Assembly (NCBI RefSeq): GCF_041260155.1 | Contig: NC_091941.1 | Span: 40,434,747 to 40,498,746, forward strand | Direction: 5' to 3' | From: Ptychodera flava | Lineage: Eukaryota; Hemichordata; Enteropneusta; Ptychoderidae | Length of the DNA stretch: 64,000 bases | Shown: positions 19,201 to 64,000 of the stretch, piece after piece | Position numbering within the stretch: position 1 is the first letter of the stretch | Layout of the letters: each line of letters opens with the position of its first letter | Notes under the pieces: model-generated | What the model was told of the DNA's origin: nothing | The model's input: the letters and a program-made list of their open reading frames with translations, nothing else | Database searches by the model: none | Program-made: the position numbers and the translations under genes

Positions 19201-22200
19201 CTAATCCTAGGGCCATGTACACCATCATTTTCTGCATTTGTATGATGCATGTGAGATGGGGACCATTTCTTGTGTACTGATATAACTCATGATGAATTCC
19301 TGAAACTTTCAGCACCTGAAGAAAATGTGGCTTGTATGAAACACGGTGGTCAAGTGATCCGTGGTGAAATGAAGGCTGCTTTGCTTGATGGTGATACAAC
19401 TAACTATGATTTAGACAGGGGGTTTACCAGACACCCTATTGAAGAACCTTCTGGAAATGGTGGTATTGTCATCAAATTAGGAAAGCCATGTATAATTAAT
19501 ACAATCAAAATGTTACTATGGGACAGAGATCCAAGGTGGGTTATGGCTTTTCAGAACATGGGAACCTTCTGTTCTTCCTCTGAATATGGAAAAGTTAAAA
19601 AAAGCAGTATTATATGTAATACCATATTTCTTGTTTATGTATTGGAATGCATTATGAAAATTGTATTGTAGATATCAACACTCCTTTAAAACTGTCATTT
19701 TCAAACATATTAATTCCTCCATATAGTTGACAGTTTTTTTGAACCCTCAAAGAGTACAGTATATGTTGATTTAGATGCTCATTCCTGTCTGGTTTTGTTA
19801 CACCTAAAGCATCCCAAGAAATATGTCAACCAGTTTTCTCAAATTTGTCCCATTGTATGACGACTTGCTTTGTTTCTTGACAAATACTTTGTTAAATTTG
19901 TTTGATATGCTGCATGAACAATTGATATCTTATGTGATGCCGATCAACCTTTTTGTGTGCCGAATTTCTATTTTTGCAGAAATATAAAAACATCAAGTAA
20001 ACTTCAACTGATTGTTTTACAGTTCACAAAAATAATAAACAAGTTTACTTTTCAACAGAACTCGTGTTTCTGATAGGCAGTCTTTTGCCCCTGTATTTGA
20101 TGACCTGAGCTACCCTGGTGAGCTTACCTTGTACAAATGCCAGTTGTGTATGTGTGTCAAGGATTGTTTGAATGATAACTTTCAATTCATATTCAGATCA
20201 TATTCCTACTACATTGAAGTATCAATGGATGAACAAGACTGGGTTAAAGTGATAGACCATTGTAGCTACATGTGTCGATCATGGCAAACATTACACTTTC
20301 AACAAAGAGTGGTCAGGTAATGACTTTTGATACTATCGGTGGCTTTTCTCCAAAAAATCTTCTCACTCAAGTTGTGCATTAAATCTGCCATCAAAGGAAT
20401 ACAGCAGTTATAAGAATGTTTGTACTTCATTAAAAGAGGAAGTCGGTGAAACAAATAAAGTTGTTCAATATTTTATGATCAGGAAGATTTTTGTAAAGCT
20501 GCCAGATCTAAATGATAAAAAAGTATTCATATGTCATTGTACAATGTTTCAAAATGTGTATACCGGGAACAGTTTTATCAGACAACAGTGTATTGGAAAG
20601 GGCTTACAAAGGATCTACCATTTTGTCATAGACTTGCATGTTTTGTCCTTGGATTATACACTAATCAGCCATTCAAATGACCCGACTGGTAAGCAGCAAG
20701 GCTTAGTAGAAACTCAAAGCTTGGATTAGTAGTGAATGCATCTCTGTGGTACCTGTGTAGGTGAAGGAGTCTAAGACTGTAACACTAGCAAAATATGATT
20801 CATAAACTTGTTTTCATCAATGTAACATGTATCATGATATGACAATACATCTGAACCTATGCAACATTGGATTAGGCTGAAATTAATCATGACAAAAATA
20901 TCCACAAGCTGGTGAACTCATATTTTGTACATCCCTATGGATACACATTAATGAGAAGATTGTAGGAGACTTTTTAAGTTGTGCATATTTTGATGTTAGA
21001 ATGTTATTGTTACAATACCCAAAGATTGACACTTTTGCCTTTTCTTGTAATTTCCTTATGTCACTTTTGGTTTTTTTTGTACAGATATATCCGTATAGTT
21101 GGAGTACACAACACTGTCAACAAAGTGTTTCATTTGGTATCATTTGAATGCCTCTTCACAAACAAACCATTCTGTCTTGATTCTGGTATTTTAGGTAAGT
21201 TCTCTTTTTGGTATACAAGAATTGAAGTCACTGGGAAAGCAGAATTGACCAGGTCTTTAAATTTCTCTGTCTCCTCCATGTCATGAAATGGCATACATAG
21301 TATATGCTATGATGATCCCTTGACAATATTCTCTATAGTATATGCTGTGATGTCCCCTCAATGGCATAGTAAACACCCTATTGCCTGGTCATGAGGGCTA
21401 TAGCACCCGTCTATTACCTTGAGGGGCCGTGTGTTACCACAAACACATCACTATTCCCAAAGGCCATAGACCAAGGGGTATAGCGATGTGTTTCTGGTAA
21501 CACAAGGTCACGAGGGGTAATAAACGGGTGCTATAGCCTGAATAAAGACCAGGTTGTAGGTGTTTTATAACACACCACACGCTCATAATGTATTATGTTA
21601 TATAGTTTTTAATGTGTTTTGATATTTTGCACCGCAACAATCCATTGTGACAAGTTTACTGGGCAGTGTTTCTACAGCGGTTTCAGTTGTACAAGGTATC
21701 ACTTTCTTTCAGTCAGAAAAATGTAACAACTTAGCCGGCTATTGAACCACTCTTTATTGAGAGTGGGGATTTAGCCGAGCGGTTCTCTCTGTGGCCTCTC
21801 CGCTAGGCGACTGATGCCGTATGTTGTGGGTTCGAACCCGATTGAAAACTAGTCGTATTTTCTTTCAAAAAATATTCTAAGCATACCTAGCGACATCCTT
21901 AGTTGCACTTTAATCTTTTCCGTTGATGAGCTGTTCAAGTTCCTAGGCTGTTGGAATGTTGGAAAATGTTGGAAAATCTGGAATCTGGAAAATTTGGTCA
22001 GAACTATTTCCCTAGGGAAATAGCTTTTCAAAAAATACCCTCTGACATCACTTTTGTCAATCCAGTGGGGACGAGACGTATCTATTTTATCGTCACGTGA
22101 TGGATTCTGGCGAATCGCGACACAGTATGAGCATGTGGCGTGTTGTAATACATGCTATGGTTGCCCCTAGATGGCATTTAGTATATGCTGTGATGGCCTC

Positions 22201-25200
22201 TTGATGGAATGCTGAGATGAAATCTCGGCATTTTTTGATAAGCATTGCGTTATTGACACACATTGTATTGCAATGAACTATATCTATATAACTCAAAGGA
22301 TGAAAACTTCAAGTAGCGTCTGTGTTTGTCTTTGTGGAGTTGCATGGACGCATAGTTGTGAACATACATTGGTTTATTAAATAGTATTGACAATGGTGTT
22401 TCTTTGCTACTACCTTTAATACCAGTACCAAATGAAAATGTTGCCACAGTGAAAGCAAGTGCATGTGTTATAGAAGGTGTCAGCAGAAGTCGCAATGCAC
22501 TGTTAAATGGTGACACCAAGAACTATGATTGGGATTCTGGATATACATGTCATCAGTTAGGCAGTGGAGCAATAGTTGTACAGTTGGCTCAGCCTTTCAT
22601 CATATCATCTATGAGGTAGGTTACTCAAGTCGTAATCACTAGAGATTGACAAGTCCATGTTTGTGTACTAATCCAAAGTTGTACAATAAGATTGCAAACG
22701 ATCTTTTCTTGCATTCTTTAGAAAAGTCTTAATAGAACTTTGTCTGATCTGTGCCAACTGTTTTGAGATGTGAAATATTTGTACCATGGTTCTTAGGGTA
22801 GTACCGTGTGTGCCTTGACAGTGAAAGACTTAAACTTTTGTTCAGACTTTCCTCAATGAAAATTTTCTGTATCAAGATCAGGGTTACTGTGCAGAGTTTG
22901 GTACTATGGAAACAAAGTACTTATTATTTATAGAGATTTGAAATTTAAAATGACCACCATCCATTTGTAAATCTATGGGGAAAAATAAAATTTTATATTT
23001 TTAGAAAGTCAGATGGTGAAATTATTTATTACTCCAAGAGCTTTAAAATGAGCTCCCATAAGTAGTAGACTAAAAGAGTCTAAAAAATTTGAGGGTTTAA
23101 GAATCTGTCCCAGTGTAAGGAACCGTATCAAGTGGTTGCATTAAGGAGTAAAGCAGAGTATATTTTCACATGATAGACTACTGCTGTGGGATTGTGATGA
23201 CAGGAGTTACAGTTACTATGTAGAGGTATCATGTGATCAGCATAATTGGACAAGAGTTGCTGACAAGACTAAGGAACAGTGCAAGTGAGTACAACTGTCA
23301 CCCAAAACAACATGATTTATTCATGTGACTACCAACTTTGTGCATTTCAAGACAATACACCTTTCTCTCATATTTTAGATATCCAGGTAAACCCACTGCT
23401 GTAAACACCATCAATACCAAGTTTCACTGTAATAAATGACTTGACCTTGCTCTCGGATTGGTCCCAAGTTTTGTTATCTTCTTGTTGTATCCCTTTAAAC
23501 AGTAAATTGTCTCGTTTCATTTGACCTTTCATCGAGTCCAATTCACTCGTCAAATCACTCACTTGATCGTTCAGCAACTTATTCTCCTCGGCAAGACTAG
23601 CAGTCTCTTCATGGGTCTCCACAAGTTCATGTTTAACGTCTTGGATTTCATCAACGAGTTCATCTATCTTTTTATTCAAATCGGCCGCCATTTTGTCCAT
23701 TTTCTTGCCCAGGTCGCTCTTTAAATTACGTAATTCACGCATCACGTCGCCAAGTTCAAAAGACTCATTTTCTCTCAAAGTATTCGAGGCGTATAACGTA
23801 TTTTGGCGTAATTGTCTCTTCTCAGTGGTCTGCTGAGAATTTTTCGGGGGGCCTGGGTTACTTTCGATGTCACCGGATAATAAGAGCATACTCAACAAAA
23901 CCATTCGTAGCCCTAGGCATAATCCCTGACAACTGACCTGCTCGTAATGGCCGACACCTGCTGCACAAGAGGGTTGGTCAAAGGTACCAATTCTCGCTCT
24001 CCATGTTTCAATTGAAACTCCCATTTCAATAAACATGCTTGCAGACGTTTCTTTTCCACTTGTTTATTGTATATATTTTGTACTGTATGCTAGCGATCTG
24101 TTTCCATATTGTGTAATTATTTTGTATATTTTGGCCGGAGGCCACAAATACTGAAATAAACATCAATATAACACTGCTGTAAACAGTTAAAGAGGATCAG
24201 TGTGCCCTCTAACAAAAGAGACTTCATGCAACTTCTGAGTCAACTGAAAAATTTGAGAAATTTTCTTGAGTCACAATATATAATTTCTTATTCATATGAA
24301 AATTTTCTTGCGTCACAGAGAATATTTGTGAGTCATGGCGTGCCAAATTGGCTTAGAGGGCACAGTTAAAGAGGATTGTAAGAAGATAATTGATGGAATA
24401 GTGAATACATATGTAGAGAAATTTTGTATAGGGAGACCACAAAGCTGCATTATGGATCACAACTAAATCAAACACACTGTGATTTTGTGCAATGTACATC
24501 TGGAAAAACACGCTCTTTGCCTAAACAATTATAGGCAACTTGTGTCATAGAATGTCATTTACTGTATTGAACATCATCATTTGTCATTTAATTAGTTGGT
24601 GTCTTATTTGATTTTTACCTGTAGAAGCTATTTGAAAGACTGGATATGAGGAAAGTTCTTTCCACAGATGAACATGCATACTTGTCATATAAATATTTTC
24701 CTTTTCAATATTAGTGTTGTTTTTCTAAAGAAATGAAAGAATTCTGTATTTTCCATGCCTCACACCTGATTGTCTTAATTGCAGATCGTGGCAAACTATC
24801 TTCTTTGATAAGAGACCCATGACATTTGTGAAAATTGTTGGAACACATAACACTGCTAATGAAGTAAGTTGATCACTTTGTGCATTTACATACAAAGTCT
24901 CCAGTAAAGAATTTAGTTGCCAGCAAAATCCCAAACGGGGATGGACAGAGTTATACTAATATTTCTTGAGAAGTACAGAGTGGTATTTGTGTTTCTATGA
25001 TAAATTTGAAATGCAATCCAGTATGGTTGTCATAGGGCATTTTTATCTCCATGTTTTCATATTCTCTGTTGTAGAGTACCCCAAGGTGATTTGCATGTGC
25101 ATGCAACTTTTCTTTCAAAATGTCCTCCAAAGTTGATGGCATGTCTTTTTGTACAGTACATGCCACGATGACCCCTCAGTGGCATTCTATTCAGTATATG

Positions 25201-29236: not shown

Positions 29237-30836
29237 TTATTAGTCCCCACGGACTCCGTCCAGGGGGGACTTATAGGGTTGGTCATGTCCATGTGTCTGT
29301 GCGTCTGTCTGTTCACGCAGATATCTCAGAGATGCCTGTAGTGATTTCATTCAAACTTGGTACAAGGATTACTTCATTATGTCATACATATGCACGTGGA
29401 TTTGTTTTGTGATACAGTCCAATATGGCCGCCGTGGGACCATTTTGTTACGATTTTTTCATGTATGGAGCCATAACTCAGGCACCTCTCAACTGATTTTA
29501 TTCAAAGTTGGTACAAGGACATTGACCTATATCATACATATGCACGTCAATTTGTTTCACGATATGATCCAATATGGCCGCATGGCGGCCATTTTGTTAC
29601 AATTTTTTCATGTCCTTAGCCATAACTCAGGCACGTCTCAACCGATTTTATTCAAAGTTGGTACAAGGACATTGACCTATGTCATGCATATCCACATTGA
29701 TTTGTTTTGTGATACGATCCAATATGGCTGCCATGCGGCCATTTTGTTACGATTTTTTCATGTACAGAGCCATAACTCAGGCACATCTCAACCGATTTTA
29801 TTCAAAGTTGGTACAAGGACATTGACCTATGTCATAAATATGCATGTCAATTGGTTTCACAATCCGATGCAATATGGCTGCCTTGTGGCCATTTTGTTAT
29901 GATTTTGTCATGTCCTGAGCCATAATTTGGATATGTATCAACTGATTTTTTTCAAAGTTGGTACAAGGACATTGACCTATGTCATAAATATGCATGTCTA
30001 TTGGTTTCACAGTCCAATGTAATATAATGGCTGCCCGGTTGCCATTTTGTTAAGATTTTTTCATGTTCAGAGCCATAACATATTTCCACAAGTATCATTC
30101 AAAGTTGGCACAAGGACGTTGACCTACGTCATACATATGCACATCAATTTGTTTCACGGCATGTAGCAGTATCATGTCAGTTATTGAATTTTTGTAGTTA
30201 GTCTGATATGTCAAGAAATACTGCATCAAATTTCATGAAACTTGGTACAGATGTTAAGCTCACATTGCTTTAACAGTGAAAAAGACATTTATCAGTGTCA
30301 AGTTAATTAATTTGTAATTGCATATGTAATGAACTTTCCTAATTAGAGTGATATATCCACAAATACTGCGTTAAATTTGATGAAACTTGGTATGTACAGA
30401 TTTTGATCTCATAGTATTGTAAATACAAATCAGTGACACTTAGTGGTATCATTTATATATATAAATTAATTGCTAGTTTGCATTTACATAATGGATTTTT
30501 GTTTTTAGGGTGAATGTCCAAAGTACTGCATCAAACTTTATGAAATATGGTACCGGTGATAATCTGTCAGTGTTAGGATAGGATGCAAAAATGTTTGGCA
30601 GCATCCTGTCGATTAAGTACTAATTGATTCATTTTAATGACCTTTTGTATTTAGTACCGTGGCTTACATTGGTTTTATGTTTTCACCACCATGGAACTCA
30701 TTTTTGGCCATTAAGCCCCATCTGTATCACAGTAATTTTAATCACAGACCTAATTAATGAAGAGGACTCTTTCCTCTCAGAGGACTTGAGTACCCATTAA
30801 CAAGTGGGGACTGTGTCAATGACTTGTTATCAAATC
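29237..30836 (+). mobile_element. 1.6-kb element of the AGTCCCCAC family, full copy
   Basis: Left end TTAGTCCCCACGGACTCCGT folds with GGGGGGACTTAT; right end AACAAGTGGGGACTGTGTC. Inside are about five tandem 150-bp units (starts near 29471, 29621, 29771, 29921, 30074) with CATAACTCAGGCAC, GTTGGTACAAGGACATTGAC and GGCCATTTTGTTA, then 3' blocks shared with 33343-33822. No transposase. The long open frame over the array is an artefact of a unit length divisible by three. Confidence 0.7.
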
Positions 30837-36113: not shown

Positions 36114-36215
36114 TTATATTTCTGTGACTGGAAGGGAATCAAACAGCATCATCCGCAATTCATCTGCTGTGGGTGCTGGATCACGTGACCAACATTGGTC
36201 TACAATCTTCAGAAG
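36114..36215 (-). CDS. 7TM-kinase exon 6: end of kinase C-lobe and stop
   Basis: Acceptor TTTTTTTATGTCACAG. Encodes LLKIVDQCWSRDPAPTADEL then RMML and ends TAA at 36116-36114. CW..DP..[RT]...EL is the subdomain XI signature of TK/TKL kinases, which shows that the long exon before it interrupts a kinase fold. Confidence 0.8.
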   Translation of the reverse strand, partial: LLKIVDQCWSRDPAPTADELRMMLFDSLPVTEI

Positions 36216-39200
36216 CTGTGACATAAAAAAATGAAGAACGAATTAAAGATTCCCAGACTACAATATCGAATATAACCCTGGCCTTGATGGGCTTATGTAC
36301 GAAAGTAATAGTTTTAGGTTCACAGAACTTGACATGCGCGACCAGGTTCTAGGATATCAATGCAAAAAACCCGATGATATCGGTCCATTTGGACTACTCA
36401 CACAAATGAAAGCATATATCATGAAACAATTTTAAAGGGAGGGGGCACAGTAAGTGAGGCTACCCACAATGCCCCATGATTTGTTCACTCAGATATTTTT
36501 TGCTAAAGGCTTTTTCAGTTTTATCAGTTCCTTAACAATTTTTAACTTATAATTTAAGTTCAGGATTATTTGTTAAAACTATGTTCCAAAATTATTGATA
36601 ATGTTTGAAATTCAAAAGTAAATTAACGAAAAGTTGATGTTTGGAGGTGCTAAAAATTGCACACTTGTAAAGATAAAGTTATCACCTGTCAGACATGCAA
36701 ATTTCCTTTGTTACGAAAATTAAAAAAAATCAATACCCTTTCTTTTGCCAACACAGATGCAACTTATTCCCTTAGTTTCCTTGAAAATATTGTGTATGGC
36801 TGTCAAAAATCTATGTCGACAAAATTACAAAATTGCTATCTTCTCCGCGGAAAAGGGATTGATCTTCTCATTATTCACAGTGAGAAATCAGAAAATTATG
36901 ATTATCAGAACTATGTTGCCAGAATTTTGAAATATGGACCGAGCTGTTCTGTGTACAGAAGAAATTTGCGTCAGCTCAGTGAGTGATATCCGTGTGTACA
37001 GATCATGGAGAATTGTAGGTAGCCTCACTTTAATACTGTGGGGGGGGGGGGGTCGGTCGTCGCGAAACTCTGCTCAAAGGTTGCCAGGGACCCCTACGAC
37101 GATGAAAGTTAACACATGTTAACAATGAATATCGTAAAATTTAAATATTGTAGCTATGTTGACGTTATGCATCTAGATATCATGCATGAAATACTATGTT
37201 TGTAAGCAAGAAAGTCGCACACGCGCAGTTCCGACGACCCCCCTTTAACTGGACTCTTAGGTAAATCTGTGACGCTATCTTTTTGTCTCTCTGCTTGAAC
37301 TGTTCAACATGTTGACATCGAAGATATTAATGCACAGGAGCGCGATCTCAATGTAGTTTTTTTAAAGATAGTTTTCGATGTTTAGTGAAATATCAAATCT
37401 GTAAATGGATGGCCAAATATATTGTTGGTACGTTTATGGATAATAAATATACTATAGTATTTACACTGTTAAACTATTGTTTTCAGTATAACCGTTTCGA
37501 ATCACATTGTTATCGTGCAGCAAAAAGGCACTGATTTTACGTAAAACGTTAACAATCTGTTACGCTGTTTTTCTCCTTAGAAGAATACTTGATTCTGTTT
37601 GCACATTGTTTTCGTGTATGAAAACATTATTTGTAAGCACTTTCCTCCTGTGACACTAATGCTTCACTTGATTGATTCTATTAACCGTAAATCAACTATA
37701 AAAATGACTCCCTCTTGTCTGAGGTTTTATGAACGATGAACATATGACATCTTTTTAAGGAGTGACTTGAGGGCCTGACCAAAGTACCCCGTATATCGTT
37801 ATCATTGAAGGCCTCCTATTGTATTCGTGGTATAGTGTCGTTACACCAATATTTTCACACGGGGTATGCTGCCCTTGTTTAAAACATCTACCAATTTATA
37901 TTTTAAAAATTGACCCATTGTCAGAAATTATCGACAAACTCGTGAATTTTACCGTTACTCTATACATGTAAAGATTTTCCATACGAAGAGGGATATTTTC
38001 ATTATCGACTCTATTTGAGGGTTTTTCAGATGAGAAAAAATCATTTTTACACCTTTCAATAGGAGTATCCCTCCCCCTTCCCTGTGTATAATAAAAAAGC
38101 CTCCAACATGTGCGAATACTTAATATTAAATCTGAGCATACTCAGTGTATAACAATAGTTACTCTGTATATAAAAGGTGTGGTATGTGACGACACTAACT
38201 TACATTTTGTCTTAGATTTCCAGTTTCAGACTCTGTACAGGTGAAGATTTGATTCAAGGATTCAGTCAGTATATCTCTTCTGGACAGCAACGATCGTTCT
38301 TTAATAAACCAAGGAAACAACATCCTTAACTGTTGATAGTAATCCAAATGACCATATCTGTCTTCTGTTGGTGTATCATCCACAAGATTTTCCATCCCTT
38401 CTTCATCAGCGCTCATCACACATGATTTGTCTGGTCGTGATAAACATGTCACTTGTGAACATGCGTTTGGTATCTGTGTTAAGTCGTCTTCTTTAGATTT
38501 ATCACTACTTGCGTCACTCATTTGTTTTTGGAATCGACTCGCCTCAACTGATTCGGATAGTTGCGAAATTGACTGCTCAAAAATGTCATCTCGTCTGACT
38601 GGGTACCTAATCATAGATGATGTGGATTCGTCGCTGTTTATCTTTCTATCCGATTTAATATCAATATCTGTTGGCCATCCTTTTATTGACCTATCATCGT
38701 CCATACCACCCTCTTCATTAACACAGCGAGGCACGTCTTCCACAAATTGACGTCTAGTCTTTAACAGTTTTTTCGATTGCAACACTTTATGCTGCGAATC
38801 AATGCCCGGACTGATTCCAGCATATCGCTTAGGTTCGGCCAAAATCTTTAAATCTTGCTTGGACAAATGTTCCATTTCTTTATGAATATTAAAACTGACG
38901 AAAGAGTGGTTCTCCTGTTTTGATACTTCAGATTTTGTCGATTTAATGTCAAAGAACGGTTCATGTTGGGTAGGTGATTTTACACGTCGACTAGCTGTAT
39001 ATGTGAGAGGAGAGTGTTTTGTTTTGTCTTCTCTCCACTCCTTGTCAGGGGTTGACAGTGTTGTCAGTGATGTTACTCCTGACTTTTCATGAAGTTCATC
39101 ATCAACTGCACACTGTGTTGGGACATCAAACAACTCTCCAAAATCAGACGATGTATTACTTTTCGATGACGATATGTTCTCAAAAGAAGAAGGTGGAACC

Positions 39201-42200
39201 AATGGCAATCTCCTGTGTTTTTGTTTCTTGGAGGACGCTAATGCTCGCATCTTCTCTGCCAGATAAGTGCGTTCACGGTTCCCCATGCTCATTTGGCTGT
39301 TTAACAATGGCTTTTGCTTTCTTGGTTGGGAGCTTTTTTGACTTTGTGAGTTTGGTAGTCTTACTTCGGCATGATACCTGATGTCTGTGTTTGAAAGCAT
39401 GTTGGATTTGGAGTGTTGGTATCGCAAGTGATCGTAAAGATAAACATTTTCGTTACAGACCGCTTGCATGGATCCTCTTTCATTTCGTTCAACTAAATCA
39501 CGACTTGTATTCATTATTCCATTAGGCCTTTTTCCGTCGAGTTTGTGACTATTTGTACCATCATTTGCCGAGTCAGAGGTAGAGTCCCCCAATGTGGCAA
39601 AACTTAAATCTTTTGGTATTGGTACTGGCACACGTGTTACCCTCGCTTTTTCCATGGTTGTCATCTTTTGATGGTTACAGGTGTCATGAGTTACACCTGA
39701 CCGATGTTTTTGTGGCTTTCTTCGTTGATCATTGTTTTCCTTTACGTGGTTTTGAACCGTCGTCTGAAAAACCGATTTATCATTCGATTCTGAGTCAATA
39801 TTATCGACCTTTAACTTTTTACTTATTCCAGTAAGATTTGGACTTGTCTTCAAAGTATTGCTAGGTGTCGATTTCGGAGTTTTGTCAAATGTGAAAGACT
39901 TTGACTCACACCGGCTGTGTAGTTCACAGGTAGAAGAAAATATGAATGTATTGTTTTCATTAGATTTAATTGTTCTTTGTAGAGTTGTACGGCATATCTG
40001 TAATTTTGAATTTGATTTCAATATTTTATCTCCATCGTCATGATTTGTTATTGTTTCATGATTACAGGAAATGACATTATTAACGTCCGCATATATTCTT
40101 TTTGCAGTAGTTTCCTTGAACTCTTCATTAGTACAAATCTGCTTTGTCCACTCAGGCGTTGCTTCGACTCTGTAAACGTCCGCTGATCGGTGACTTTTGG
40201 GGAAAACTTTCTCTGAACCAATTTTCCTTAAAGATAGTCTTGACAGCGAAAGTTTCTCCTTCGTGTTTAGAACTTTAAACGCGCTTTTCAGTGAATGTTG
40301 AAATGTCCGTGGTGGCAGATCGCAGTGACCTATTTCTCTGGTATTGTCAACTTGGTTCTCAACAGGTGCTTGACGGACATTAACGATGACTGGTTTATCT
40401 GACGTGATTGCAGTTCTATCAGTGCTCTTCAATGGATGTGCTGCAGTGGGTCGAACTATGTCAAGATTTGCCTCGTTAACAGTTTCTGTGAACTGGATCA
40501 ACTTGGGAGTTGATCTAACACTTATTTGACTTCTCATATCGTCTATTGGGGAGAGTGCTAAATCATCATCTTTTGACAAAGTGTCGGGTGCGGTAGATTC
40601 GATCACCATTCGCTCTGTCAGATGCTGTGATACATGTGATCTTGGCGATGTTTGTGAGACAGAGCGGTTTGTCTTTCTAATCACTCCTGGATTGCAACTT
40701 TGACGTATTTCATAAAAGTTGCCCTTGTTTCCGAGCACGGAACATTTGATGGAGTTCAATGAATCATCGGCTTGCTCTAACCATGCAAGCATTTCTAACA
40801 AGACGAGAGCGAAAGATCTAATGTCAAAAGAGAAAGCATAACTTCGAATTCCAGCGGGTGTTGCCAATCTTTCAGAAGCAGGAACTGTAAGGCAGCAACA
40901 TGTTCTTTGTATGAAAAAATACTTAGTTGGTTCCTGGCTTAGGTTCGACAAATCCATGGCCTTATTGAAGTCAGAAATGACAACTTCTAGAATCATGGTC
41001 TGAAAGAGGGGGAAGTAGCGACATGTTACTTGTAAAACGACTGCTTTAACAAGAACAGAGAGTACACAAACCTTTCGAATTACATGAAATAACAACAGTC
41101 GACACTATCACTATGAATAAATTGCAGAGCTTGACAACACATAATGTAGATAAATACCTCGGTGTTGAAAACTTTACAGATATATGCTTAATACTTTAAT
41201 GAAAATTTGGCTGTCTCAGTAAGGGCCCTGTCACACCTTGACGATTTAGCCAGCGTATGCCGACGTATCAAAATTTCTTTAAAACACTGGCTTGCTGAAT
41301 TTACGATGTATATTTCAATTTTGGGCATATAAATAACGTATTCATAACGTACTCATAGGTTAAAAATACGTTTTGTGTACGCTAGACAATTATCTTGACG
41401 CATTTCGACTTCTGTTATGAGTAACTTACAAGTAACGTGTGTGAATGTGTGTCCACGAGCGCATAACCTAACTACAACTTAATGTCCCACGTATGCCGGA
41501 CGTATGAGCCACAGGTTCTCGTAACGTTGCTTGGATAGTCGTTCGAGGCGATAGAACTTAAAACTGCATTACTGACAATAATCATTAACAGCACTGTCAG
41601 ACTGGTAGGTCTTGTGTATAATCTAAATGCGCATGCGTTTGGTAGTGAGCACCACCGTCGCCGCCGCTGCAAGCAGTGCCCAGAGTTGCCGCCAGCGGCA
41701 TTTGGTATCATGTAAATGCGCATGCGCCTACCAATGAGCAGCACTATCGCCGCCGTAGTCTGGCAGAGACCCTGCGATTCGCGTTCTTCCCTGTTGGAAC
41801 ACGCGCGCGCCCTTCAGAGACGCGACGCGAATCCCAGGGTCTGGACGTTCTTGCAAGCGACCGGTCGGATTTCTGCCTGATCCGGGTACTTTATAGAACT
41901 CCACACATCCGTCAATCAAAACAAAAATGACAAGTACCATAGCCAAATAGATTAAAAATGAAAAATAAAAATATACCGCGTATATAAGTCTATCAGCTAC
42001 TAGTATATATTCCCTCCGCCCAGTTAGATATGTTTTCTTTTGACATCACTACCCTTATGAATATTCATATACTTGCAAGAACCGACAGTCGCTGTGTCTG
42101 GCAGCGCGTGCTCACAGCTGCACAGCCTTCGAATGCAGGCCCATCGCGGCGCGCACAAAACAAGGCACAGCGACTGTGGAGAGTCTATCGCCGCCGCTGC

Positions 42201-45200
42201 AAGCAGGGCCAAGAGTTGTCGCAAGCGGATTTTGGTACAACTTAGTGCGCATGCGTTTACTAATGAACAAACCACTGTTGTAGGCGCCGCTTGAATTGTA
42301 ACCATAGGCGGCCCATACATATTGATAAGCTTATTATTGAGTTTTTCTCAGTTTTCTCTGTCACTGTCAATCCCTCTCCTTTTCTTCATGCTCTGACTGA
42401 TCGTAGTAAATAAAATAAATGGCTATATAGCCTAACCTATAGCCTCTTGGCTCTTTATTCATTTTACACTCCATTACAAGGACGTATATCTCTCATACAC
42501 ACATGCTGTAATTGATTAGTCAACACAACTAATTATGCTAATCCGTGGACTTATCAGAGGTTGGTCAACATCGGAAAGATAGTGATGTTAATGAAAAAGG
42601 TTTTAGTAACCATTCCTATCTTTCGCGATGTTGACCAACCCGTAAAATCCCTGATAAGTCCACGGATTAGCATAATTAGTTGTGTTGACTAATTAATTAC
42701 AGCATGTGTGTATGAGAGATATACGTCCTTGTAATGGAGTGTAAAATAAATAAAGAGTCACAGAGGCTAGGTTATGTTATATAAACCATTTATTTTATTT
42801 ATTCCGATCATTCAGAGCATGAAGAAAGAAGAGAAAATGATAGAGAAAACACTGTGAAAAACTCAGTAATACTTATTGGGTCGCCTGTGAATTGACTAGA
42901 GTTGTCGCCAGCGGCATCGAGTACAATCAAATTGCGCAGGCGCTTCCAAATGAACAGCGCTGCCGAATTGCGCTGCCGCTGCCGGGCCAGTGAGCCAGCT
43001 GTAGTTGTAGGTGTCGGCTTTTAAAGCCCCCACTCAATTATCAGATTTATCTAATATAAATATTAGTTACTTGATAAAATATTCAATGGAAAACAAAAGA
43101 ATGACAAACTGTTAATGGGCTGTTGACACATTTGCTAATGCGAGAACCTGGGATTGAGAAGGGCGCCTGTCGGGTGATAAGTTGTAGGTGTCGGGTGATA
43201 TTCTACAGTTGTCGGCTCTGGAGTTGTCGGTGCCGGTCAAAATTCTGTTGTTGTCGCCAGTTGTACTGCCAGATTTGTGTAACAGTTGTCGCCGCTGCAT
43301 TCCTATGTAATTTTGCATTGGTTTGACTGTTGTCGCCGGGGGTCCCGAACGGCTTTCCATACCGTTTACTACTTTCCACGTAAACGGCGACCTGCGGCAG
43401 CCCGCCTCGAACGACTATCCAAGCAACGTTACGAGAACCTGTGGTATGAGCCATACGCTGGGATACGTCGAAAAGTTTTGTGCATGCACAAAAGTTTTCG
43501 ACGACCTCGACGTATACCAGAGTGCTTAGCGTGCTCTTAACCGACACAAAACTTACCCATAACGTATTCGACGTACGCCCAGCGTATTCGCAAATTTTTT
43601 CATACGGTTGGCATACGCTGGCTAAATCGTCAAGGTATGACACGGTCTTAAGTCAAAACTGGTATAAAAAAACACTCAAAAGTCTACAAGTCCTGTATAC
43701 TCTTTCATTGATATTGTCAATTTATCCTGCTTCAGCAAGTATGTACATTTAATTTATATCTGACATTTTGATTAATTTGTTCTAGTGAGTCTGTCTACTT
43801 CAGCATATTGATGCTATCTGCAGAGAGACATCATAATATACATATGTATGTGAAGCCGTCTAGAGTCTATCACAACAAATTATCGATAAGTAGAATTACT
43901 TTACAGATTATAAAGAGTTTACTGAAAATGAGCTGCATTTTATAAAGATTTTTAAACACAATAGCATGGATAAATTGCAGGGATCGTCAACTCATTAAAA
44001 CGTATCTGATATCGTTTGTGATCTCATCTTGCTAGAACGTCAAACAGTGAAAACGTTTTCTTCATCGGAGCAAAACAAGGGAATCCTTACACACCAGGTC
44101 ATATGGAAGTTTTTATCGTTGTAGATATACCAGGTACTTATCATTTATGATTTGGATAGTATGTGCCTCGGAAACAGAGAGACTTAAACTGGTTCTCAAA
44201 GTTACCTCAAGGAGACTTTCAACTATATTCTCTTTCCAAATTAAGAATACAAAACTGTTACCAGAGAAACAAATCATCAAAGATTTACCGATATTCAAAA
44301 TTTAGAATAGCGGCCGTCCCTGTGCTAACTTTATGGAGAAGAACAACATTTTTAAATTTTGAAAGATACTAAGAAAATGTGGAAATGCTTTTTACTCCAA
44401 GGGGTTTTAAAAATGAACCCCCACAAGTTATAGACCACAAAGGTTTGGGAAAAATTTGAACGTCAAATATCTGTCCCCGAGGCGCGTAATCTGTATTTTT
44501 GCAAAGAACGCTAACAACTATAGTTACATGTTCAAGGTTCTGGTTATAAAAATGGTTTTACTTTTCCATGTGACGTTCTCTACCCATTCTTACTTTTCAT
44601 CTCATTCTAAAATCGGAGGCAACGTAATTTGAACATGGCTGGAGCAGAGGTAATTCTCTAATACCATGCATCTTTGATGTGTTCATTATCATCTGTTCTG
44701 TACTTCAACGTTAAACATGCATGGACACGGCTCTGTGACATCACAAAAAATCATTTTACCTGAAGGTTTCCGCCGACCAAAACACTCGTTGAGGTCAAGT
44801 TGTTGTGTACAATGCGCATTCCATGTAAATATTGAAGACCAGAAGCTATTTGATCAGCAATTGCATGTATATTTGCATCTGTCAAACTGCTTCGGTGATT
44901 AATAAATAAACGCCTGAGTGATCCATGTTTGTACAGGCCAGTGCAAATATATCTGCCAAAACATTAGCAACATATGAAAAGTTGTCTATTAAAGGAAAAG
45001 TTGACAAACGTATTAACGATGGGTGAGAGAAGATCGAACGATTTGAATGATTATGATGAGAGTTATCTGGAGCGTAGCAGTTGCAATCAGTAATTGTGGA
45101 AATATCATCAAATTTCTGAGACTCCTTTGCAAAATTTTGCCAATTAATGCCTTTGCACGATATTAATTTGTGTAACAAATCCATCTTCCATCTTCAATCA

Positions 45201-48138
45201 AATTCAGAGAAGCCATTACCATCGTATACATAATTGTCCGAAAACGGTAAATTTGCAAATAAATGATAATTGTGTAAGTCTTGCCGACGGAACACATTTT
45301 AAAACAATTTAATATTAAAGCAGCATTATTTCAGTATTATAACACAATGGGAAAGAGTAGAGTCTGCCCCTCACACAAACACACACACAATGCCGAAGTT
45401 ATCTTTCCGAATTGAGTGATTGATTTCCATATTCACTTTACTAAGGATCAAACGATGTTTAACAAACTTATCTTTGTGACGTATTCTTGTGATCTTTACC
45501 TGCTATAATTCTGGAAATGGCGCCATAAACTGAGCGGACAATTTTCAATCGTCGTGTGGTTGCAGTCCGAGTACCATTCATATTCTGAAATATTCGGATG
45601 CTGATCATAACGGGACAATCTAAGCATAATCTTGATCTCGTTTTGCCACTCTTTAATTCTGGTTGGATGGAAGAGTTTCAGCATTCCATGTGAAGTTGTT
45701 TCACCATCGTAGCTCCACTCAATGATCGCAGTTTTCTGAAATAATAATCTCACAAAGCTCATATTGGAAGAAATTACACGCATAGTTATCCATGTGCTAA
45801 AACAACAGCAGGCATATATTTTGCAGGAGAAATAGTAAATATTATTTAAAAACTAAAAATGTACTGTATTGTGAAACAGCAATAAACTTAAACCAGAATA
45901 TGAAATTGCTATATGAACTTTTCCGCAAGACCGAAAAAGCGGATTACTTGTGATGAGAAGTGGTGCAATGCAACAATGCATTGCACCAGTCTCTCAGAGG
46001 TCAGATGTAGACTCTTTCAAACATTTAGCTATTAAAATTATGTCACTTAGTGGTATATTCGGTGAATTTTGAGACGTACTGGCCATGAATATGAAAGTAC
46101 AGCAATTAACTTCTACGTTACATAGAAAAAAAAGGGAGACATTTTGTACCAATTCAGTGGTCATGCAGGAGGGGTCAAAAGGGAACCCCTTTAAAGAAAC
46201 TTTTGAAAATTGAACTATTGAAATGGCATCATTTTAGCGAAATTTTGGGTGAAGATTTAGACATGTACCTGTCAAGTGTAGCGTTAGAGCGGGTAATACA
46301 GAAGATGTTATCATGTTGCCTATTTGGACATTTTGGTCACATTTCATCCTAGAATCGCACGAAAGTAGTGGCCCTCCGCTAATGCCTGTACAAATTGTAA
46401 AAGTCCCCGCTCCCCCAACAATTTCATGAAATATAGTGACCCGACCGCAAATTGCACCTCCCCAATTAAATGTGTCCAGGCCCTCAGTAACTACTTATTA
46501 TAGCTATGCCACAATGATAGCTGCATAGCTGCCTCAGACCAACAACATTTTGGCCCATTGCCTCGGGCTTCCATATCCACTGCCCTTGAACTCAAGACCG
46601 CACATCTTCTTACATTTGTAGTAGTAGACGGTTCGTACCTCCTTATCATGGCCAGCGGTCATGAGTTCCGATGCTATCCATGTAACTCGGCTCGGTGCAT
46701 TATTGCTGATTTCTGCAGTCTGGGGACTCGTTTTGATAAATTCTGAAATTGTTAATCAGATATATAGAGAAGTTGTCTGAGTACCGACAATGTATTAATT
46801 GTTCGGTAATGTACATGTAATTTCTCTCAATATATATGAAAGCTATACTGAATAAACGTTGACACCAAACGCTGTAATCATTCAAAGGTTCTGGATTACA
46901 GTAGAGTGCGACTCACAATTCACTACGCCCGCACTACAAAATTGAAATCCTAATTTATAGCTATCCGCGCTTCATGTCAAAACTCCTCGAGAAGCAATTT
47001 GCGCTATCTTTTTTATTCGGAGTTGTAATGTTTAAGCAAATAATAATAGCATGCGTTATTATTTTCCAGTGGCAACTTGCCAAGCAAAAACGTGTAACGT
47101 CCATTAATCACATTGGCATTTCTAGATTACGCTCAGGCCACTACTTATTGATAACACTGAAGAGATTTGGGTCTAGCATGATTTACCTCCTATCTTGCAT
47201 TCTGTGAACATCTTTATAAGCTCCTTCCCGTTATCGACAGTTAGAAAAACGTACAAGATTGGGTGAAGTACTGAACTTATCGGTAAAACAAACCAAAGTA
47301 ACCACTCACAAACGTCGACAGAAACAACTACGCCTGTGTTCGTACTGAGACTAACTATCAGCGAAGGCACCCAACATACAACATGTAAGAGAGTCAAACA
47401 GGATAGTTTACGAGCAGTTGAACTGCCGCCTTTTATATTATTGACGTCACTGGTGATGACATGTACTGCTGTCCGTCGTCGACGTACATCGCTGTTAACG
47501 TAGCAGATAAAAAATGATGTAATGAAGATGCAAATACCCAACAATGTCGCGATGAAAACATTATAGATCCTCATTGAATAGGACGGGAAGAATATCCTCA
47601 GACAGAAGATGCCCTCTGTGGCAGGTGTACTGTCTAAGTTTGAACGTAATGGCAGAGCTGCCAACATAGTTACAAAACAAACTTCGATGAAGATAACAAT
47701 TCCAAACATAAACGTAGGGTTCTTTCTGTTCAATTTTCCTGGTGTGAAATGTTGACAATACAGCGTAATAGACAGTGTTAGTACAATCCATACTGACATT
47801 TGAACGGAAAATGAGCCGAGAAACCCGATAAATTTACATATGGAACCAGTGATCCACTCCTCTTCTCTCACATTGTTGTTACTATCATTGTAGGAATCCA
47901 CTGATGTTAGTATGGTTAGATAAGTCCCAGTAATGATATGATTCAGAGATAATGCTGATAAAAATAATGCGAATGCCGACGTTTCTTTCTGTTGATACAA
48001 TCTTGTGAAGAGAAGGGCGGCATTGCTTATGATTGTCGTCAAGGCAATAATCCACATGGCAACGCTCAAACTGTCCGATGTGATGATGTGAATTGCTTCA
48101 TCTTCTATACTCTGAGTGATAGTTGTATTGTTGGACAT
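36114..48138 (-). CDS. Predicted 7TM receptor fused to a kinase-like domain (six exons, about 1460 aa)
   Basis: Minus-strand exons 48138-47187, 46742-46639, 45735-45500, 44952-44760, 40999-38204 and 36215-36114 join with phases 1,0,2,0,0 and GT-AG borders. Residues 1-317: class A 7TM core with a short N-glycosylatable N terminus, TM3 Cys and ECL2 Cys, CWVP in TM6 and HPILY in TM7; TM6-TM7 resemble relaxin/LGR receptors; no DRY. Residues about 335-575: kinase fold with Lys372 (GMLKLF), Glu385, HNN at 480-482 for HRD, DFN at 505-507 for DFG, PASERL for APE, and FDIRSFALVLLEML for helix F. An ~800-residue Ser/Thr/Lys-rich insert follows, then QCWSRDPAPTADEL, the last kinase helix, and a stop. 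Expected in membranes, with a signalling-scaffold or regulatory pseudokinase. The 7TM-kinase join rests on phase and proximity; a separate single-exon 7TM gene is the alternative. Confidence 0.7.
36446..37040. mobile_element. 0.6-kb inverted-repeat element in the last intron
   Basis: CACAGTAAGTGAGGCTACC at the left and GGTAGCCTCACTTTAATACT then GTG at the right form imperfect inverted ends. Flanks are G-runs (GGAGGGGG and GGGGGGGG), possibly an 8-bp duplication. CAC...GTG ends would suit hAT. An internal 109-codon frame has no recognisable domain. Confidence 0.5.
37041..38203 (-). other. Last intron of the 7TM-kinase gene, remaining part
   Basis: A 14-G run near 37040-37052, otherwise AT-rich intron sequence with no element recognised. 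Confidence 0.4.
38204..40999 (-). CDS. 7TM-kinase exon 5: activation segment, helix F and giant insert
   Basis: A single 2796-bp exon (932 codons, phase 0 both sides). Acceptor CCCCCTCTTTCAG; donor CAAAAT then GTAAGT. The first ~80 codons hold VVISDFNKAMDLS, VPASERLATPAGIRSY and FDIRSFALVLLEMLAW. The rest is polar, rich in Ser, Thr, Lys and Asp, with several S/T-P sites (SPIDD, TSPRSH, KTPKSTPSN, KTSPNL) and no recognisable fold. The last ~45 codons (YYQQLRMLFPWFIKERSLLS) look ordered again and lead into the kinase C-lobe end. Unspliced, the frame would stop three codons after the donor. Confidence 0.8.
41756..42187. mobile_element. 432-bp element, copy B, with 9-bp target duplication
   Basis: TAGTCTGGCAGAG...GAGAGTCTA, closely matching copy A (16620-17055) throughout. 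Flanked by TCGCCGCCG at 41747-41755 and 42188-42196, a perfect 9-bp duplication of the host tandem repeat. Hairpin-forming pairs AGACCCTGCGATTCGCG/CGCGAATCCCAGGGTCT and ACAGTCGCTGTG/CACAGCGACTGT are intact. Confidence 0.8.
42331..42872. mobile_element. 0.54-kb foldback element
   Basis: Arms of about 255 bp are inverted copies: GGACGTATATCTCTCATACA and TGTATGAGAGATATACGTCC, ATTATGCTAATCCGTGGACT and AGTCCACGGATTAGCATAAT, GTTGGTCAACATCG and CGATGTTGACCAAC. Centre near 42595. Nested in the Harbinger-like element. Confidence 0.8.
44160..44490 (-). mobile_element. Copy 4 of the dispersed ~330-bp family
   Basis: Reverse orientation: AGACTTAAAC near the left, ATTCAAAATTTAGAATAGCG, TTTTAAAAATGAACCCCCAC, and CTGTCCCCGAGGCGCGTA at the right. 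Sits 270 bp from exon 4 of the 7TM-kinase gene. Confidence 0.6.
44760..44952 (-). CDS. 7TM-kinase exon 4: kinase helix D-E and altered catalytic loop
   Basis: Acceptor ATGTTTTGGCAG, donor CTTCAG then GTAAAA. Encodes YICTGLYKHGSLRRLFINHR, ADQIASGLQYLHGMRIVHNN and LTSTSVLV. This is kinase subdomains V-VIb with HRDLxxxNVLV replaced by HNNLTSTSVLV, so the catalytic Asp is Asn. Another open frame overlapping it is a shadow. Confidence 0.82.
45500..45735 (-). CDS. 7TM-kinase exon 3: kinase N-lobe
   Basis: Acceptor TTATTTCAG, donor TAGCAG then GTAAAG. Encodes KTAIIEWSYDGETTSHGMLK, then EWQNEIKIMLRL and HPNISEYEWY, i.e. beta-3 Lys, helix C Glu and the HPNI strand-4 lead-in. Phase 0 in, phase 2 out. 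Confidence 0.8.
45953..46638 (-). other. Intron between exons 3 and 2
   Basis: AT-rich intron. A short palindrome (TGGTGCAATG at 45961 with CATTGCACCA near 45977) is the only structure seen. Confidence 0.4.
46639..46742 (-). CDS. 7TM-kinase exon 2: linker and first kinase strands
   Basis: 104 bp, below the length at which open frames stand out. Acceptor AACAATTTCAG, donor AAGGAG then GTACGA. It needs one base from the previous exon (G from the 7TM exon, giving Glu) and reads EFIKTSPQTAEISNNAPSRV then TWIASELMTAGHDKE. The segment would hold the juxtamembrane linker and beta-1. Confidence 0.65.
47187..48138 (-). CDS. 7TM-kinase exon 1: rhodopsin-class 7TM core
   Basis: ATG at 48138 with an in-frame TGA three codons upstream. 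Seven hydrophobic segments near residues 24-46, 55-80, 95-127, 141-163, 188-215, 240-263 and 270-296. TM1 has ISNAALLF (N1.50); W..G..CKF.GFLGSFS resembles LGR/RXFP receptors; VVCWVPSLIV and LPISSVLHPILYVFL match the RXFP pattern CW.P and LP.NS.LNPILY with Asn to His. DRY is absent (TLSITLYCQHF). No leucine-rich repeats or LDLa module precede it. Donor GGAG then GTAAAT at 47186 leaves phase 1; unspliced, a TAG follows after five codons. Confidence 0.85.
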
Positions 48139-62695: not shown

Positions 62696-64000
62696 TCTCA
62701 TTTGCTCACGTGTTGACACACGTGGGCATATGTCGCAGCGATGTCTGTCTGTCTGTGTGTCTGTCCGTCTGTCTGTCTGTGTACTCAATATCTCAAAAAC
62801 GGCTCATCAGATCAGAATCAAATCTGGTACATAGATTCAGTTTGCAAATTGCAAGAACTGATTAGTTTTTGGTGGGTGTGGCTTGCTTACTTTTTGCTCA
62901 TTTGCATAATTAATGATTTTAGAAAAAACTGATATATGTTGACAACGACAGCACACAATTTGATGAGATTCGCTACAAATGTTGATCACACCAAGATATA
63001 TCAGCTTTAAAAGATATTAAGGGGTGACGTGAAAGATAATTACTAATTTGCATGTTTAATAAAATTTCCTAATTAGGAGTATATATCTGAATATACTCTA
63101 TCAAAATTGACGAAACTTGGTATGCATATTGAAGATACTATGATTTAACCTTATTGAAAGTCATTAAGCATTTTAACTTCATGCAAATCCTAATTTGCAT
63201 ATTTAATGAATTTTTGAAATTAAGGATATCTATTTGAAGTTACATGACCAAAATTGATGAAACTTGCTATGTACATTAAAGATACTATGATAGAACATTA
63301 TTAAATGTCATTCAGCATTTTTACATCAGCCAATTCCTAATTTGCATATTTTATGAACTTTCCTAATTAGGGGTATTTACTTGAATTAACGAGACAAAGT
63401 TGATGAAACTGGCTATGTACGAGACCAAAGTTGATGAAACTGGCTATGTACATTAAAGATACTATGATAGAACATTATTGAAAATCATTAAGCATTTGAA
63501 CTTTAGCCAATTCCTTATTTGCATATTTAATGAACTTTCATAATCAGGGATATTTATCTGTATTGACTGAACAAAAGTTGACAAAACTTGCTATGTACAT
63601 TAAAGATGCTACGATACGACATTATTGAAAGTCATTAAGCATTTTTACTTCATCCAGCTCCTAATTTGCATATTTAATGAATTTTTGAAATTAGGGATAT
63701 GTATTTGAATTTACATGAGCAAAATTGATGAAACTTGCTATGTACATTAAAGATACTATTATGTAAGCTAACATTATTGAAAGGCATTAAGCATTTTTGC
63801 TTCAGCCCATTCCTAATGTGTGTATTTAATTAACGTTCCTAATTAGGGATATATTCTTGGATTTATTTGATCAAAGTTGGCATAACATGCTATGACATTG
63901 ATGATTATACCAGGTTATACCAATATTGGAAGTCATTTCGCACTTAAGTTTTCATGTCAGCTAATTAATAGTTTGCATATCTAATGAGCTTTCAAAGTTT
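62696..64000 (+). repeat. Repeat element with ~150-bp tandem units, runs off the window
   Basis: Opens with a CACGTG-containing hairpin (TGTTGACACACGTGGGCATA), a CTGT run at 62740-62780 and CTCAATATCTCAAAAACGGC. Then six or seven units spaced 147-155 bp, each with CTAATTTGCATATTTAATGA, GATGAAACTTGCTATGTACA and ATTGAAAGTCATTAAGCATT. A 30-bp local duplication lies at about 63391-63452. The unit resembles sequence at 30180-30480. Confidence 0.75.

What the first reader, a model, noticed from the sequence alone, without database searches (positions are those of the whole stretch)
36114..48138. A 7TM receptor spliced to a kinase-like domain
Seen: the 7TM frame ends at a good donor in phase 1 (GGAG then GTAAAT); 445 bp further the next acceptor opens an exon that needs exactly one base; four more junctions agree in phase and build a kinase fold on the same strand. 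The first kinase exon has an acceptor but no plausible start, so something upstream must be joined to it. Known: 7TM proteins joined to kinases are described in protists such as Dictyostelium, oomycetes and choanoflagellates; I know of no rhodopsin-class 7TM-kinase receptor in a deuterostome. Inference: a one-piece receptor that carries its own cytoplasmic kinase-like module.
Basis: partly seen in the sequence, partly recalled or inferred. Interest (0 to 1): 0.92.

Follow-up and report, generated by a model that had tools for sequence, protein, structure and literature searches.

The report
Acorn-worm membrane receptor with built-in pseudokinase
An acorn worm carries one gene that welds a hormone-receptor-type seven-pass membrane domain to an apparently dead protein-kinase domain, a one-piece design described in protists, choanoflagellates and sponges but, as far as we could find, not in any deuterostome animal.

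Summary
Six minus-strand exons (48138-36114) join in frame to 1,460 aa, identical to a public record, 'uncharacterized protein [Ptychodera flava]', so the window is from an acorn worm (hemichordate). A second acorn worm, Saccoglossus kowalevskii, has LOC102809902 with the same order (TM1-5, kinase-like domain, long tail), but that record lacks TM6-7 and the linker. The 7TM is rhodopsin-class, nearest to LGRs: RXFP1 4.5e-15, a sea-urchin GRL101-like 7e-19. It has no LRR ectodomain and has lost D2.50, D/E3.49, R3.50 and N7.49. The kinase-like domain resembles TK/TKL kinases (Pfam 8e-12). HRD is HNN and DFG is DFN, so it is a predicted pseudokinase; S. kowalevskii keeps HND. Pfam misses the 7TM, which may explain why the fusion went unnoticed. 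Paper passages read place 7TM-kinase fusions in oomycetes, amoebozoans, choanoflagellates and sponges; one calls 7TM-enzyme fusions rare or nonexistent in metazoans. Best reading: a real, conserved, LGR-derived 7TM-pseudokinase receptor, probably G-protein-independent. That mechanism is inferred. No transcript was seen.

The parts
47187..48138 (-). Exon 1: start codon, short N-terminus (about 20 aa) and all seven TM helices (residues 1-317); donor GAG|GTAAAT
   Evidence: PDB RXFP1 4.5e-15; seven long predicted helices 22-48, 54-83, 99-131, 141-161, 187-226, 232-267, 274-303
46639..46742 (-). Exon 2: linker (residues 318-352); 104 nt, changes the phase from 1 to 0, so it is needed to keep frame with exon 3
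   Evidence: present in P0002; absent from the S. kowalevskii record
45500..45735 (-). Exon 3: kinase-like N-lobe (K372 of 'GMLK', E385 of 'NEI', 'QHPNI')
   Evidence: Pfam kinase match from residue 380 on
44760..44952 (-). Exon 4: kinase-like domain through the catalytic loop; HRD replaced by HNN (480-482), catalytic-loop Asn site is S487
   Evidence: S. kowalevskii has HND and N at these sites
40775..40999 (-). Exon 5, first part: DFG replaced by DFN (505-507), then 'DIRSFALVLLEMLAWL' (helix F region)
38366..40774 (-). Exon 5, middle: about 800 Ser/Thr/Lys-rich residues (571-1373) with four short blocks conserved in S. kowalevskii (658-672, 703-717, 728-742, 1075-1089)
   Evidence: local score 149 against shuffled mean 58, sd 9, max 98 of 300; composition
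38204..38365 (-). Exon 5, end: possible return to the kinase C-lobe
   Evidence: inference only; no profile match
36114..36215 (-). Exon 6: last 33 codons with 'CWSRDPAPTADELRMML' and stop; possible kinase C-lobe end
   Evidence: motif by eye only, tests negative
47012..47017 (-). AATAAA inside intron 1: would allow a 7TM-only transcript (321 aa ending GGKSC); no evidence of use
41000..44759 (-). Intron 4, with mobile-element-like inverted repeats

Best explanation
One gene in the acorn worm Ptychodera flava encodes a single 1,460-aa membrane protein: a short outside end, an LGR-derived rhodopsin-class 7TM bundle, a linker, a cytoplasmic TK/TKL-like pseudokinase, and a long, presumably disordered segment before a C-terminal piece that may belong to the kinase C-lobe. 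Shown: frame-consistent exons, an identical public record, a second-species relative with the same order, an LGR-type 7TM, a kinase-type sequence, and missing D2.50, DRY and N7.49 residues and catalytic Asp. Inferred: the protein arose when a 7TM-encoding last exon of an LGR-type gene was spliced onto a downstream kinase gene; ligand or membrane state is passed by shape change straight to the attached pseudokinase, which acts as an allosteric platform or scaffold (short conserved blocks in the long segment dock partners) instead of activating a G protein. I put the fused protein at about 0.85 and, given that, the G-protein-independent scaffold mechanism at about 0.45. The confidence below is for the anatomy: one-piece, conserved, LGR-derived 7TM with a pseudokinase.
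For: Exact identity of the six-exon join with an NCBI/UniRef record. S. kowalevskii LOC102809902: E 2.4e-101, 78/197 identical over TM1-5, 51% over the kinase-like part, same order. Exon 2 lacks an upstream start, and its 104 nt are needed for frame. 7TM: RXFP1 4.5e-15, L. pictus GRL101-like 7e-19; in the Foldseek list the first 17 rows are LGR-family receptors. Kinase: PF00069 and PF07714 at 8e-12 in the whole protein, 3.4e-13 and 2.1e-13 with the long segment left out. D2.50 is H in both acorn worms and D in 5 of 5 other 7TM rows; R3.50 is L in both acorn worms and R in 4 of 5 others. Long segment conserved above shuffles.
Confidence: 0.72

Rival explanations
1. Two neighbouring genes, a 7TM gene and a pseudokinase gene, wrongly merged by gene prediction in both species.
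For: Both records are probably predicted models. Two papers in a listing (PMC3927609, PMC4967905; abstract starts) warn that gene-prediction errors affect claims of novel animal domain architectures. The S. kowalevskii record jumps from inside TM5 to exon 3, which is not a clean join. An AATAAA lies in intron 1.
Against: Exon 2 has an acceptor, no upstream in-frame ATG and a stop four codons before it. The 7TM exon has a donor in the top 2% of GT sites. Five junctions agree in phase. The order is the same in two species. No stand-alone relative of the pseudokinase appeared among 7990, 6699 and 7969 scored candidates (two unrelated-looking kinases at E 0.16 and 0.58), but a stand-alone kinase shorter than about 367 aa was outside the length range of all three searches.
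Confidence: 0.12
2. Alternative ends: the gene makes a 7TM-only receptor (321 aa, intron 1 retained) as well as the fused form, so the pseudokinase is an optional module.
For: The 7TM frame meets a stop 14 nt after the donor, and an AATAAA follows at 47017.
Against: AATAAA is common in AT-rich DNA (about 0.4 expected by chance in 444 nt, my estimate); the only P. flava record found is the fused form, though a 321-aa form was outside the length range of those searches.
Confidence: 0.2
3. A working receptor kinase, at least in S. kowalevskii: the 7TM controls phosphotransfer.
For: S. kowalevskii keeps residues at the Lys, Glu, HND Asp, catalytic-loop Asn and DF(T) Asp positions.
Against: P. flava has HNN and Ser at the Asn site; both species lack the glycine of DFG and a recognisable glycine loop.
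Confidence: 0.12
4. An ordinary G-protein-coupled LGR-type receptor that happens to have a long regulatory tail derived from a kinase.
For: CWxP, the TM3-ECL2 cysteines, N1.50, P7.50 and Y7.53 are kept.
Against: D2.50, D/E3.49, R3.50 and N7.49 are replaced in P. flava; the first three also in S. kowalevskii, where TM6-7 are missing from the record.
Confidence: 0.2

Closest known systems
GPCR-TKL/K and GPCR-TK of choanoflagellates and sponges (PMC12716839)
   Same: N-terminal 7TM with C-terminal kinase-type domain in one protein; the paper says the fusion likely evolved repeatedly and that, to its authors' knowledge, none is functionally characterised (section 26 read)
   Different: There the TKL/K 7TMs clustered with no other eukaryotic GPCRs and the TK ones formed no unified family; here the 7TM is LGR-derived, the host is a deuterostome and the catalytic loop is broken. 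Descent from a common fusion was not tested
GPCR-TKL bigrams of oomycetes and amoebozoans (PMC5784254, PMC6033456; passages read)
   Same: 7TM plus TKL-type kinase domain
   Different: Unrelated lineages, large families in oomycetes, 8 of 17 in P. infestans with a DEP domain; the 2018 paper has no evidence of them in other taxa and calls GPCR-bigrams rare or even nonexistent in metazoans
LGR family, relaxin/GRL101 branch (RXFP1, GRL101)
   Same: 7TM sequence and predicted fold
   Different: No LRR or LDLa ectodomain; D2.50, DRY and N7.49 lost; intracellular pseudokinase added. An ambulacrarian LGR survey that used both acorn-worm genomes reports one orthologue of each of three LGR types despite extensive attempts to find more (PMC8286064, passages)
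TK/TKL pseudokinases in general (JAK pseudokinase domains recalled as an example)
   Same: Kinase-type sequence with broken catalytic loop
   Different: Attached to a 7TM and followed by an about 800-residue segment

Membership tests
GPCR-TKL/K or GPCR-TK fusion receptors | 7TM and kinase-type domain in one polypeptide | tested here: met
   Six-exon join identical to public record P0002; record level, no transcript seen
GPCR-TKL/K or GPCR-TK fusion receptors | 7TM or kinase clusters with the choanoflagellate or sponge families | not tested
   Their sequences were not fetched; only text was read
GPCR-TKL/K or GPCR-TK fusion receptors | Intact kinase catalytic residues (my yardstick; the passages read do not state it as defining) | tested here: not met
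   HNN and DFN in P. flava
LGR receptors (relaxin/GRL101 branch) | LGR-type 7TM | tested here: met
   RXFP1 4.5e-15; GRL101-like 7e-19; LGR-family receptors fill the first 17 Foldseek rows
LGR receptors (relaxin/GRL101 branch) | Leucine-rich-repeat ectodomain | tested here: not met
   About 20 residues before TM1; Pfam finds no LRR in P0002 or P0003 at E up to 0.01. An unpredicted upstream exon is not excluded
Class A GPCR | Seven-helix rhodopsin-like fold with TM3-ECL2 cysteines and CWxP | tested here: met
Class A GPCR | D2.50, D/E-R-Y and NPxxY microswitches | tested here: not met
   H67, T125-L126-Y127, H292-P-I-L-Y
Protein kinase (TK/TKL group) | Kinase sequence profile | tested here: met
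   PF00069 and PF07714 8e-12 in P0002, cut-offs passed
Protein kinase (TK/TKL group) | Catalytic Asp of HRD | tested here: not met
   N482 in P. flava; D in S. kowalevskii
Protein kinase (TK/TKL group) | Complete C-lobe (helices G-I) | tested here: inconclusive
   Motif CW..DP in exon 6, but no match
GPCR-PIPK | Phosphatidylinositol phosphate kinase domain | tested here: not met
   Only PF00069/PF07714 found in P0002
Any of these | Signalling output (G protein, phosphotransfer or scaffold) | not testable with these tools
   needs expression work

The most novel reading that the evidence does not exclude
Probability: 0.4. Interest if true: 0.85.

Novelty: new variant of a known kind. Interest (0 to 1): 0.72.

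Why it matters
7TM-kinase fusions are on record for several unicellular lineages and for sponges. [quoted passage not shown] A conserved deuterostome case built from a well-known hormone-receptor 7TM would show that the design arose again within bilaterians. It would give a natural test of whether a class A 7TM can signal through a covalently attached pseudokinase. Because Pfam scores the kinase but not the 7TM in both acorn-worm proteins, other such fusions may be hidden among proteins labelled as uncharacterised or as kinases.

Tried and rejected
Whole-genome search: no genome is held for this window. Relatives of the kinase part and of generic kinases in viral contigs: none confirmed (0 of 4 and 0 of 33 pattern matches). 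Rfam (gathering thresholds) and tRNA scans: nothing. NCBIfam gave only weak kinase-type matches far below cut-offs.

Kinase C-lobe completion by the last exon: not supported by Pfam at E up to 10, by a 7-sequence kinase HMM (the 11 best rows shown are all shuffles out of 2,000; the tail's own rank was cut off the output) or by phmmer at E up to 10 (one non-kinase hit at 0.31); kept as inference only. That HMM was built from divergent oomycete and fungal kinases, so the test is weak. A fold of the kinase with its long segment was not submitted, because trial alignments misplaced that segment. The structural lists do not exclude families that are not listed.

The first exon coordinates that I tried were off by a few bases and gave stops; corrected. 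A search for the Saccoglossus gene name in papers found none. Papers: PMC12716839 section 26 whole and passages; PMC5784254, PMC6033456, PMC8286064, PMC11175523 passages; PMC3927609 and PMC4967905 listing with abstract starts only. That no deuterostome 7TM-kinase receptor is in print rests on searches in an open-access library only; most subscription papers, including a Saccoglossus GPCR catalogue that I only recall, were not seen, and most listed papers were not opened.

Residue numbering such as D2.50, the names of the GPCR and kinase motifs, the splice-site weights and the kinase group labels (TK, TKL) are recalled conventions.
Full report
What was checked. The finding places a 7TM frame and a kinase-like frame on the minus strand and joins them by splicing. 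I read the strand and rebuilt the exons. After correcting my own first coordinates, six exons (48138-47187, 46742-46639, 45735-45500, 44952-44760, 40999-38204, 36215-36114) join to 4,383 nt, 1,460 residues and one stop. The introns are 444, 903, 547, 3760 and 1988 nt. By a simple weight matrix, 5 of 5 donors score in the top 3% of 3,624 GT sites on the strand; the acceptors at 40999 and 36215 are strong and the other three ordinary. Exon 2 is 104 nt and is needed to move from phase 1 to phase 0. Upstream of its acceptor the frame closes after four codons without an ATG, and inside it there is one ATG (M345).

What it is. The joined protein is identical over all 1,460 residues to a public record named uncharacterized protein [Ptychodera flava], held with a 41.9-Mb contig. 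The window therefore comes from an enteropneust hemichordate, and the public annotation made the same join. Of 6,699 scored candidates in that search 7 passed E 10; apart from the record itself the only close one is Saccoglossus kowalevskii LOC102809902, 1,227 aa, E 2.4e-101, and three more are LRR-bearing 7TM receptors at 2.1e-13 to 4.5e-5. The Saccoglossus protein has the same order: TM1 to TM5 (78/197 identical), then the kinase-like domain (51% identical in the trimmed alignment), then a long tail. Its record leaves out TM6, TM7 and the linker exon and has no recognisable counterpart of the last exon, so it supports the order but not the junction. A first search with a shortened query gave 1 hit among 7,990 scored candidates. 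A third, with the two-sequence alignment, gave 3 among 7,969 and did not relist its own second row, so I treat its absences as weak.

How it most likely works. Shown: the gene structure, the order in two species, the receptor-type 7TM, the broken kinase and the lost G-protein switch residues. Inferred: one polypeptide in which the 7TM passes a shape change directly to a pseudokinase platform whose long segment carries docking motifs, without a G protein. The 7TM frame meets a stop 14 nt after the donor, and the whole 7TM lies in one exon. This suits an origin by splicing a 7TM-bearing last exon onto a downstream kinase gene, but a stop that close also occurs by chance.

Comparison with the known. 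[quoted passage not shown] The GPCR-bigram paper says that such fusions are rare or even nonexistent in metazoans (PMC5784254, passages). A survey of ambulacrarian LGRs that used both acorn-worm genomes reports one orthologue each of three relaxin-branch LGR types despite extensive attempts to find more (PMC8286064, passages). This protein is not a member of the LGR family by its full definition (no ectodomain), nor shown to be related by descent to the protist fusions. In layout, if the record is right, it is like them. I class it as a new variant of a known kind.

Doubts. No read was seen. Published work warns that prediction errors create false architectures (PMC3927609, PMC4967905; abstract starts). 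Against that stand the phase-consistent exons, the lack of an upstream start for exon 2 and the repeated order in a second species. A 7TM-only form ending in intron 1 remains possible (AATAAA at 47017), and the searches made could not have found a 321-aa record of it because of their length limits.

Noticed in passing
17057-18608, + strand: BTB (2.5e-11) and BACK domain exons; with exons near 19.3 and 22.4 kb that look discoidin-like by eye (Pfam gave nothing for 19255-19671) they suggest BTBD9.
   Followed up: partly
17751-18006: Minisatellite of 8.5 copies of a 30-bp unit, 99% matches, between the BTB and BACK exons; open in three + frames and one - frame.
   Followed up: no
41509-43444, inside intron 4: Perfect 42-nt inverted repeats 1.85 kb apart around a 115-nt internal inverted pair: looks like a non-coding DNA transposon.
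   Followed up: partly
23368-24063, - strand: 231-aa frame with a 'GDIESNPGP' motif (2A-like, recalled) and coiled-coil-type weak Pfam matches, like the first ORF of a non-LTR retrotransposon.
   Followed up: partly
29342-30158 and 63043-63852: Diverged tandem arrays with about 150-bp and 147-bp units (79-82% matches), satellite-like.
   Followed up: no
P0003 (S. kowalevskii LOC102809902): The Saccoglossus record jumps from TM5 to the start of kinase exon 3 and its end does not match the last exon; it is probably incomplete.
   Followed up: partly
P0007 (Globisporangium splendens): A 2,248-aa oomycete protein with several kinase domains in a row (by eye), one of which also has HNN in place of HRD; weak match at E 0.16.
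   Followed up: no
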